The translations under genes were made by a program, and so were the position numbers. From Bifidobacterium breve (lineage in GTDB: Bacteria; Actinomycetota; Thermoleophilia; Solirubrobacterales; Solirubrobacteraceae), in contig CAMCUD010000006.1 in assembly GCA_945878865.1 (NCBI GenBank), positions 1 to 64,000 on the forward strand: DNA of 64,000 nt, written 5' to 3'. Positions 53,192 to 56,380 of this stretch are shown here, one piece after another; the stretch's first letter is position 1; every line of letters begins with the position of its first letter. The notes below the pieces were generated by a model. That model worked only from the letters and a program-made list of their open reading frames with translations, was not told where the DNA came from and made no database searches.

Positions 53192-53227
53192 GCAGGGTCC
53201 GCTCCCGCGACGTCCGCGCGTGTGCGA

Positions 53228-53362
53228 TATATTGCGAGGCAGCCCGCAGGGGGGTCGCTGTCTCGGAACCCCCGCGCACGTTCCGGTGTGAGCCGGAAAT
53301 CTGAGGGTCCAGCGCCGAACGAGAGAGCGGCGCGCTGTCTATCGCAACAAGGAAGCCGACTG
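53228..53362 (+). promoter_or_regulatory. Promoter and structured 5' leader of the helicase gene
   Basis: TATATT (53228-53233) is the best -10 box of the window. The roughly 120-nt leader can fold into three hairpins in a row: CGC-AG-GGGGG with CCCCC-GCG (53245-53276), TTCCGG/CCGGAA (53281-53298) and GCGCCG/CGGCGC (53312-53333). AAGGA follows at 53349, 9 nt before the GTG. Neighbouring genes are mostly leaderless, so this leader is exceptional and probably regulatory. Confidence 0.5.
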
Positions 53363-56300
53363 GTGGCTGAGTCCACGCCAGTGGCCGATCCGGCCACGAG
53401 CCTGCCGAGTGACGACCAGATCGCTCGTGCGGAGAAGTTCGCGCATGAGGAGTTCCTCCACGCAGGGGAAGACCCCGCGGAGGCGCTCGCCCCTGGCTCC
53501 GCCCGCCGGCGCGCCCTCGACTGGGCGCTGTACGAGATCGACCAGGGCCGCAAGGTCCCGTCGGAGAAGTGGCGGCGCAAGTGGTCGCTGCTGCTCGGCC
53601 TCGAGCGCGTGCTCTCCGACGACGAGCCGAAGCTCGCCGACGGCACGACGCTCAACCCGCACCAGGTCGATGCGCTGTCCGGCACGCTCGCCGCGCTGCT
53701 GACCGAGGCGCAGAAGAGCGAGGACGGCGACGCCGAGTACGCCGACATCGAGACGGCCGCGCCTGTCCTCTCGGTCGAGGAGGAGCTCGTCCTCGAGGAC
53801 GACCCCGAGCTCGCCGACATCGAGGACCTCGAGGAGCTCGACGAGGACGAGCCCGAGCCCGAGCCCGAGGACGACGAGGACGTCGACGCCGCCGCGGCCG
53901 CCGACGAGGAGCAGCTCGAGGAGCAGCCCGACGACCCGAACGCGCACAAGCGCTTCTGGTTCGAGCACGCGACGGGCGCCGGCAAGACGGTCGCCGCGAT
54001 GGGCTTCGTCGCCGCGTCGCGCACCGGCGGCGTCCTGATCCTCACCCACCGCCGCAACCTCGTCGACCAGTTCAACGACGAGCTGAAGACCCGCGGCTAC
54101 AGCAAGCGCATCAGCCGGCCGCTGCTCGAGGGCGAGCAGGACAACGCGACGGGCCCGGTGACCGTCGAGACCTACCAGTGGTTCGTGCGCAACGCGGGCA
54201 AGATCAGCTCGGCGTACACGGTCGTCATCTGCGACGAGGCGCACACCGCGCTGGGCGAGAAGACCGCCGCCGCGATCCGCGACTGGACGGGCCCCGTCTT
54301 CATCGGCATGACCGCGACGGGCGCGCTCATCGCCCGCCACGTCACCGACCTCTTCCCGACGCAGACGTCGCGCTTCGATCTCGCGCAGGCCGCGCGCCGT
54401 GGCGTCATCGCGCCGCTGCGCTGCGTGCGGATCCCGCCGGGAGCGAACGTCCGCTCGATCGCGAAGGTCCCGTTGCGCCGCGGCGAGGTCGACGTCGAGT
54501 TCGACCAGGAGCTGCTGGCCGAGGTCCTCGACATCGATCCGTTCAACCGCGCGATCGCGCAGGTCTACAAGTCGCGCTTCGCCGGCGTGCCTGGCGTCGT
54601 CTACGCCGCGGGCGTCAAGCACGCGTACAACGTCGCCGAGGCGTTCCGTGACGAGGGGCTGAAGGCCCAGGCCGTCTCGGGTGAGACGCCCAAGCGCGAG
54701 CTGGCGAAGATCCTCGCCGACTACGAGAAGGGCAAGATCGACGTCCTCGTCAACGCCCAGCTGCTCGCCGAGGGCTGGAACTCGCCGCGCGCCACGGTCT
54801 GCATGCACCTCGCGCCGACGGCGTCGAAGCGCATCTACCAGCAGCGGGTCGGCCGCGTGACGCGCCGCCAGCCGGGCAAGGAGGCGGGCATCGTCGTCGA
54901 CTTCGTCCACCAGGCGACGAAGAACGACGACCCGATCGTCACCCTGCACTCCCTGCTCGACCGCGAGGTCTACCGGGGCGGCGCGATCGTCGTCGGCCCC
55001 GTGCGCCGCGGCCGCGGCCGCCGGGTGCGCGTCGAGCGCCGGGTCATCCCCGTCGTCGCCGACGAGCTGCGCCGGATCGAGGTCTTCGAGCGTGAGCTGT
55101 GGCGCATCGCCGTCGAGCATCTCGAGTACGGCGAGCAGGTCCAGTGGGCGGCGCTGGCCGGCGCCCGGGTCGCGCCGAGCGGCTGGCGCCGCGCCCGCGC
55201 GATGCTGCACTTCGACCGCGAGGGCGCGCTGAAGCGCGCGTTCCTGCTCACGGCCGTCCAGCGCAACAAGAACCCGCAGCTGCGCATCCGCGCGCTCCAG
55301 GAGATCGCCGCGTCGCGCGACGCCGAGGCGTTCAGCCTGGCGATCGACGAGATCGGCAAGTGGCCGCGCGAGGACCGCCGCGAGGGCACGAAGGTCATGC
55401 TTCAGGCGCTCGCCGAGAAGCGCATCGGCCGCCGCGACCAGGCGAACCAGTGGATCTGGCAGCTGGCGTCCTACACGAGCGAGCTGCACGAGGAGTACGC
55501 CGTCCAGCGCTGGCCGGAGACCAAGCGCCTGCTCGGCCTGCTCGTCAACTCGTCCGGCCAGGCGCACGCGCGCAACGCGCGGCGCCTCGTGCACGCCGCG
55601 CGCGACCAGGACCGCCGGCTCTCCGCCGCGATCCTCGCCGCCGCTCGCGCGCACACGCCGGAGGCCGAGGAGGTCCTGCGCGGCGCCCGCACGCGCCTGG
55701 CGCGCAAGCCGGGCGCGCTCAGCCGCGAGCTCCTGCGCAACTTCCCCAAGCGCGGCCGGCGCGGCAAGCGCAAGCGCGGGAAGAAGGGCGGCGAGGACGG
55801 GTCCACCACGGAGCTGCTGGAGGTCGGCGCGTCCACGACGACCGAGGAGGGCACGGGCCGCAGCAAGCGCTCGCGCTCGCGGTCGCGCCGTGCTCGCGCC
55901 AAGCGCGCCCGTGAGGCCGCCGAGGCGGCGAAGCAGTCGTCCTTCACCCGGTCGCGCCGTCCGCGGTCGCCGCAGGTACGCGCTGCGCTCATCGCGTCGC
56001 TGCAGCCCGCCGAGGCCGCGCCGCAGGAGCCCAAAGCGGAGTCCGGAGTCGCCGAGCAGCCGAAGGCCGAGCAGGCGAAGAAGCCGCGCGCGCGACGCAA
56101 GCCCGCGGCCAAGAAGCAGGCAGACAAGGCCGTGGCCGAGGCGCGGCCGGCCGAGGACACGCCCGCCGAGAAGAAGCCGGCCGCCAAGCGCAAGCCGGCC
56201 TCCCGTTCCAGGGCGAAGAAGAAGCCCGTCGACGAGCAGGCGGCGGTGGCGGCGATCGGCGCCGCGGCCGAGCTGCTGCACGGCGGCGGGTCGCGCCCGG

Positions 56301-56380
56301 ACGGCGACGGTGACGGCAGCGGCGGCGGGGCCAAGCCCGTCGTGAGCGTGCCGGACGCCGACGCCCAGGACGCCGCGTAG
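53363..56380 (+). CDS. Superfamily II DEAD/DEAH-box helicase with acidic insert and basic tail
   Basis: 1005 residues. An N-terminal helical domain, a very acidic stretch (about 117-195), then an SF2 core with Walker A ATGAGKT (about 203-209), DEAH box VVICDEAH, motif III GMTATG and motif VI QQRVGRVTRR. A helical HEAT-like region follows (about 530-790). The last 200 residues are Lys/Arg/Ala-rich with KRGRRGKRKRGKKGG and RSRSRSRR clusters, like nucleic-acid-binding tails. Acts on DNA or RNA; not a known repair or restriction helicase. GTG start behind a structured leader. Confidence 0.85.
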   Translation: MAESTPVADPATSLPSDDQIARAEKFAHEEFLHAGEDPAEALAPGSARRRALDWALYEIDQGRKVPSEKWRRKWSLLLGLERVLSDDEPKLADGTTLNPHQVDALSGTLAALLTEAQKSEDGDAEYADIETAAPVLSVEEELVLEDDPELADIEDLEELDEDEPEPEPEDDEDVDAAAAADEEQLEEQPDDPNAHKRFWFEHATGAGKTVAAMGFVAASRTGGVLILTHRRNLVDQFNDELKTRGYSKRISRPLLEGEQDNATGPVTVETYQWFVRNAGKISSAYTVVICDEAHTALGEKTAAAIRDWTGPVFIGMTATGALIARHVTDLFPTQTSRFDLAQAARRGVIAPLRCVRIPPGANVRSIAKVPLRRGEVDVEFDQELLAEVLDIDPFNRAIAQVYKSRFAGVPGVVYAAGVKHAYNVAEAFRDEGLKAQAVSGETPKRELAKILADYEKGKIDVLVNAQLLAEGWNSPRATVCMHLAPTASKRIYQQRVGRVTRRQPGKEAGIVVDFVHQATKNDDPIVTLHSLLDREVYRGGAIVVGPVRRGRGRRVRVERRVIPVVADELRRIEVFERELWRIAVEHLEYGEQVQWAALAGARVAPSGWRRARAMLHFDREGALKRAFLLTAVQRNKNPQLRIRALQEIAASRDAEAFSLAIDEIGKWPREDRREGTKVMLQALAEKRIGRRDQANQWIWQLASYTSELHEEYAVQRWPETKRLLGLLVNSSGQAHARNARRLVHAARDQDRRLSAAILAAARAHTPEAEEVLRGARTRLARKPGALSRELLRNFPKRGRRGKRKRGKKGGEDGSTTELLEVGASTTTEEGTGRSKRSRSRSRRARAKRAREAAEAAKQSSFTRSRRPRSPQVRAALIASLQPAEAAPQEPKAESGVAEQPKAEQAKKPRARRKPAAKKQADKAVAEARPAEDTPAEKKPAAKRKPASRSRAKKKPVDEQAAVAAIGAAAELLHGGGSRPDGDGDGSGGGAKPVVSVPDADAQDAA

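What the first reader, a model, noticed from the sequence alone, without database searches (positions are those of the whole stretch)
53228..53362. Three-hairpin leader before an unusual helicase
In a window dominated by leaderless genes, this gene has a strong TATATT box, a roughly 120-nt leader with three consecutive hairpins and a late ribosome-binding site. CTGTCT occurs both in the first loop and beside the third stem, so alternative pairing is possible. The encoded SF2 helicase with its basic tail could bind its own leader.
Basis: partly seen in the sequence, partly recalled or inferred. Interest (0 to 1): 0.6.

Follow-up and report, generated by a model that had tools for sequence, protein, structure and literature searches.

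The report
Conserved structured leader of helicase gene
The mRNA of a single-copy helicase gene in this actinobacterium (order Solirubrobacterales) begins with a folded, untranslated stretch of about 120 bases; such a folded leader, with diverged sequence, is kept on the same gene in most relatives tested and matches no catalogued RNA family, so it probably controls how much helicase is made.

Summary
A -10 box (TATATT 53228-53233) precedes a ~120-nt untranslated leader with three hairpins and the helicase start GTG 53363. Alone it is unremarkable: it folds like its shuffles, and its two congeners are too similar to inform. Relatives change this. The helicase occurs in 216 of 232 Solirubrobacterales genomes; genus-level leader alignments fold better than tree-based null alignments (11 of 16 groups at 0-2 of 100 nulls; Stouffer -18.2, about -12 without sister family f7), while flanks give +1.9. 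G-U exceed A-C cells, as for sense RNA. A two-genus covariance model finds leaders of other genera, but does not score this window's leader, whose membership rests on orthology and layout. No Rfam match. Sister family f7 has a different structured leader on the same gene, its last hairpin ending ~3 nt before AUG. The CTGTCT switch fails: neither second copy nor complement is kept in congeners. Shine-Dalgarno sequences are rare; AGCC sits 4-8 nt before the start in about half the genera. Best reading: a new cis-acting leader family; feedback by the helicase is plausible, untested.

The parts
53223..53233 (+). extended -10 promoter element TGCGATATATT
   Evidence: a -10-like box lies 110-139 nt before the start in about 128 of 141 orthologous leaders
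53240..53362 (+). untranslated leader (transcription start inferred 5-8 nt after the -10 box)
   Evidence: no ATG inside; ATG and GTG depleted in orthologous leaders
53245..53276 (+). hairpin H1, loop carries the first CTGTCT
   Evidence: H1-type hairpin kept in congeners with G-U changes
53281..53298 (+). hairpin H2, TTCCGG/CCGGAA
   Evidence: H2 pairs vary in a compensatory way in other genera
53310..53337 (+). hairpin H3, GCGCCG/CGGCGC core
   Evidence: H3 pairs vary in a compensatory way in other genera
53349..53355 (+). Shine-Dalgarno-like AAGGAAG, particular to this genus and few others
53354..53357 (+). AGCC motif just before the start codon
   Evidence: positioned at -8/-7 in orthologs, 22 of 42 genera against 8 expected within 20 nt
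53363..56380 (+). SF2 DEAH helicase gene (1005 aa) controlled by the leader

Best explanation
The leader belongs to a new family of cis-acting structured 5' untranslated RNAs attached to one core helicase gene of the Solirubrobacterales. Shown by computation: promoter position, untranslated leader, conserved sense-strand hairpins in orthologs. Inferred: it acts after transcription starts, on translation initiation or mRNA stability, because there is no terminator and no leader peptide and initiation is mostly without a Shine-Dalgarno sequence. Most likely it tunes helicase synthesis by feedback: free helicase binds or unwinds the hairpins and thereby changes ribosome access or decay of its own mRNA. 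The feedback step is a proposal only.
For: Leader folds beat tree nulls in 11 of 16 groups, Stouffer -18.2, double-change cells 122 against 72; flanks do not; column-shuffle z down to -5.3; G-U over A-C 109 to 65; model from two genera finds others in place and strong hits are one per genome; start codons depleted; no Rfam match.
Against: The window's own leader gives no statistical signal and does not score with the model. Single-pair tests lack power. Nothing shows that the helicase acts on RNA or on this leader; its nearest named families include DNA repair helicases.
Confidence: 0.45

Rival explanations
1. The hairpins are a constitutive scaffold: they protect the mRNA or present it to the ribosome in the absence of a Shine-Dalgarno sequence, without regulation.
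For: Strong Shine-Dalgarno in about 1 of 42 genera, AGCC at a fixed place; hairpin directly before the AUG in f7 with SD-like sequence 5' of it in 13 of 27.
Against: A leader this long and conserved on one gene suggests more than generic initiation; the window itself has an SD-like AAGGAAG.
Confidence: 0.25
2. Another trans factor (a ribosomal protein, a cold-shock protein, CsrA or an RNase) reads the leader, or it is a thermosensor.
For: CsrA is present in 198 of 232 genomes and GGA-type motifs occur in the H1 zone.
Against: Genus g24 has no CsrA match in four genomes yet keeps a GGGAG-bearing leader (L142, L154). No family-wide rRNA mimicry.
Confidence: 0.2
3. The inverted repeats are DNA elements (operators) or chance hairpins of GC-rich DNA, not RNA structure.
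For: Single-sequence z is +0.54; reverse-strand z values are also strong.
Against: Tree-null and flank controls; excess of G-U over A-C cells, p 0.0005, cells not independent; hairpins lie downstream of a positioned -10 box.
Confidence: 0.07

Closest known systems
RNase E (rne) 5' UTR feedback leader of E. coli (PMC10989929, abstract)
   Same: structured untranslated leader of a gene for an RNA-metabolism-type enzyme, candidate for feedback in cis
   Different: different enzyme and lineage, no sequence or Rfam relation; feedback is not shown here
crhR RNA helicase autoregulation, Synechocystis (PMC3485376)
   Same: a helicase whose expression depends on its own activity at transcript and protein level
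   Different: DEAD-box RNA helicase, cold/redox-regulated; no conserved three-hairpin leader was tested against it here
Lineage-specific ribosomal-protein leaders found by comparative genomics (PMC7247131)
   Same: conserved leader confined to one gene and one lineage, no ligand-like conserved core
   Different: the downstream gene is not a ribosomal protein and family-wide rRNA mimicry was not found

Membership tests
cis-acting structured mRNA leader (general kind) | conserved secondary structure with compensatory changes in orthologous leaders | tested here: met
cis-acting structured mRNA leader (general kind) | effect on expression of the downstream gene | not testable with these tools
   needs reporter fusions
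H2-H3 covariance model R1 (genera g18 and g11) | window leader scores with the model | tested here: not met
   6.6 bits, misplaced alignment; placement of the window in the family rests on orthology and layout
known Rfam families (riboswitches, r-protein leaders, thermometers) | match at or near the gathering score | tested here: not met
   none at gathering in the window except a tRNA; only chance-level matches in 13 loci
transcription attenuator | intrinsic terminator in the leader | tested here: not met
alternative-pairing switch via CTGTCT | both copies and their complement conserved | tested here: not met
   second copy and AGGCAG absent in L009 and L036
autoregulatory helicase leader (rne/crhR-like logic) | helicase binds or remodels its own leader | not testable with these tools
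   needs binding and reporter assays
autoregulatory helicase leader (rne/crhR-like logic) | element confined to the helicase gene | tested here: inconclusive
   where the model fits strongly there is one hit per genome, but the model is too narrow to cover the whole family

The most novel reading that the evidence does not exclude
An undescribed, class-wide autoregulatory leader in which an SF2 helicase senses its own activity by unwinding hairpins that gate initiation without a Shine-Dalgarno sequence; sister family f7 kept or converged on the same logic with a hairpin directly before the AUG.
Probability: 0.2. Interest if true: 0.75.

Novelty: new member of a known kind. Interest (0 to 1): 0.5.

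Why it matters
It adds an uncatalogued structured RNA to a poorly studied, largely uncultured actinobacterial class, tied to one near-universal helicase of unknown role. If it is a feedback leader, the RNA gives a handle on what the helicase acts on, and the positioned AGCC motif in Shine-Dalgarno-poor leaders gives a test case for how such mRNAs are initiated.

Tried and rejected
CTGTCT switch: second copy and AGGCAG complement not kept in congeners. Start-codon hairpin AGCC/GGCU: not above null, 22.2 genera against 17.1 (max 24.4) for shuffles and 23.8 for swapped coding starts, and AGCC stays when the coding side changes to GGCC. rRNA mimicry: the window alone has 15/17 identity to the 16S 3' region, but that region ranks 183rd or lower of 895 rRNA windows over 42 genera. 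Automatic order-wide structural alignment with a home-made STRAL-like aligner failed and MAFFT misaligned distant leaders, so statistics were made per genus. An R-scape-like single-pair test had too little power: one pair each in f7, g14 and g18. The AlphaFold model of the helicase is poor in its core (mean pLDDT 55) and the PDB fold search gave only generic RecA-like matches.

Full report
What is there. The sequence shows TGCGATATATT at 53223-53233, then about 120 nt without an ATG, with three hairpins (53245-53276, 53281-53298, 53310-53337), AAGGAAG at 53349-53355 and an in-frame GTG at 53363 that opens a 1005-aa protein. The protein has ResIII/DEAD and Helicase_C domains; its best named relatives are far below their cut-offs and include RadD, XPB and RNA helicases. 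Motif II is DEAH, and a lysine/arginine-rich tail follows a predicted helical repeat domain. The neighbours are a divergent thioredoxin-like gene upstream and a phosphodiesterase-like gene downstream.

Is it more than chance? Not from this sequence alone: the leader folds like its shuffles. The comparative test is decisive. The helicase is found in 216 of 232 Solirubrobacterales genomes, and I collected 141 non-redundant leaders in 42 genus-level groups. A -10-like box lies 110-139 nt before the start codon in about 128 of them. Genus-level MAFFT alignments give consensus folds better than column shuffles in most groups, z down to -5.3. A stricter null places the same substitutions at random along the tree and refolds: the leaders win at 0-2 of 100 nulls in 11 of 16 groups, Stouffer -18.2, with 122 double-change cells against 72. 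This includes the sister family f7, which contributes most; without it the sums in the same output give about -12 and 87 against 69. The region just upstream in the same genomes gives +1.9 and 86 against 97. Among helix cells G-U outnumber A-C 109 to 65, which points to RNA of the sense strand.

How far does the family reach? A covariance model of H2 and H3 from two genera finds leaders of other genera in the right place and strand: L110 E 2e-4, L084 4e-3, and weaker ones. Scanned over 232 genomes, the strong hits (E below 1e-5) are one per genome, and those whose helicase coordinates were listed lie at its leader. Weaker genome-wide hits (E 1e-4 to 0.1), where I could compare coordinates, lie elsewhere and look like chance, so the model is too narrow to census the family. 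It does not score the window's own leader (6.6 bits). Placing the window in the family therefore rests on orthology of the gene, promoter spacing and the three-hairpin layout, and on two congeners whose hairpins are kept but hardly vary.

Sequence features shared by the leaders. A Shine-Dalgarno match of 5 nt or more is present in about 1 of 42 genera; AGCC, with its first base mostly at -8 or -7, is present in about half, against 8 expected within 20 nt of the start. ATG and GTG are depleted. GAGG-type purine motifs lie in the H1 zone in about half the genera, only modestly above expectation. No Rfam family matches. I found no description in the searched literature, but most subscription journals are not in that library.

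A sister family. In f7 of the same class (helicase 48-51% identical) the same gene has a different leader: a similar promoter, a hairpin with an AGGGGA-type loop, and in 25 of 27 species a terminal stem of 6 bp or more whose 3' arm ends about 3 nt before the AUG. Compensated variants include GCAGCAC/GTGCTGC, GCGACAC/GTGTCGC and GGCAGCG/CGCTGCC (shuffles: mean 10.4, max 17). Shine-Dalgarno-like sequence lies directly 5' of that hairpin in 13 of 27 (null mean 5.0, max 9). Whether the two leader types share ancestry is open.

Mechanism. Shown: a conserved, sense-strand, untranslated structured leader on one helicase gene. Inferred: control of translation or mRNA stability, since no terminator and no leader peptide is seen. 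Feedback by the helicase is the most economical trigger because the element is tied to this gene; precedents are the rne 5' UTR (PMC10989929) and crhR (PMC3485376). CsrA is widespread in the order, yet g24 has no CsrA match and keeps a leader with GGGAG, so CsrA is unlikely to be the general reason. The CTGTCT switch, a start-codon hairpin and rRNA mimicry were each tested and not supported.

Limits. Start codons were chosen by conservation and some may be wrong. The null alignments were not realigned by MAFFT, which may favour the real data somewhat; the flank control shares that bias and stays negative, which limits the concern. No experiment was done.

Noticed in passing
L207-L235 (family f7 of the class), last 30 nt before the helicase start: Terminal hairpin of 6 bp or more ending about 3 nt before the AUG in 25 of 27 species, with SD-like sequence directly 5' of it in 13 of 27: an SD-hairpin-AUG layout worth its own study.
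   Followed up: partly
window 53354-53357 and 141 orthologous leaders: AGCC at -8/-7 before the helicase start in about half of 42 genera, in leaders that mostly lack a Shine-Dalgarno sequence; no pairing partner found.
   Followed up: partly
window 53342-53358: TCGCAACAAGGAAGCCG is 15/17 identical to the 16S rRNA 3' region TCGTAACAAGGTAGCCG of a congener; not shared by the family, so probably chance.
   Followed up: yes
L107-L110, L112, L113, L117 (genus g13), at the helicase start: A mini reading frame ATGGCTGAT-N3-TAA or similar sits immediately before or overlaps the helicase start (TAATGGCC), as if the usual start had been closed by a stop and a new start used.
   Followed up: no
232 Solirubrobacterales genomes: CsrA (PF02599) is nearly universal (198 genomes, often two copies) but has no match in any of the four g24 genomes.
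   Followed up: no
window 53363-56380: The helicase carries a confidently predicted C-terminal all-helical repeat domain (residues about 568-795, pLDDT about 90) and an acidic linker of variable length before the core.
   Followed up: no
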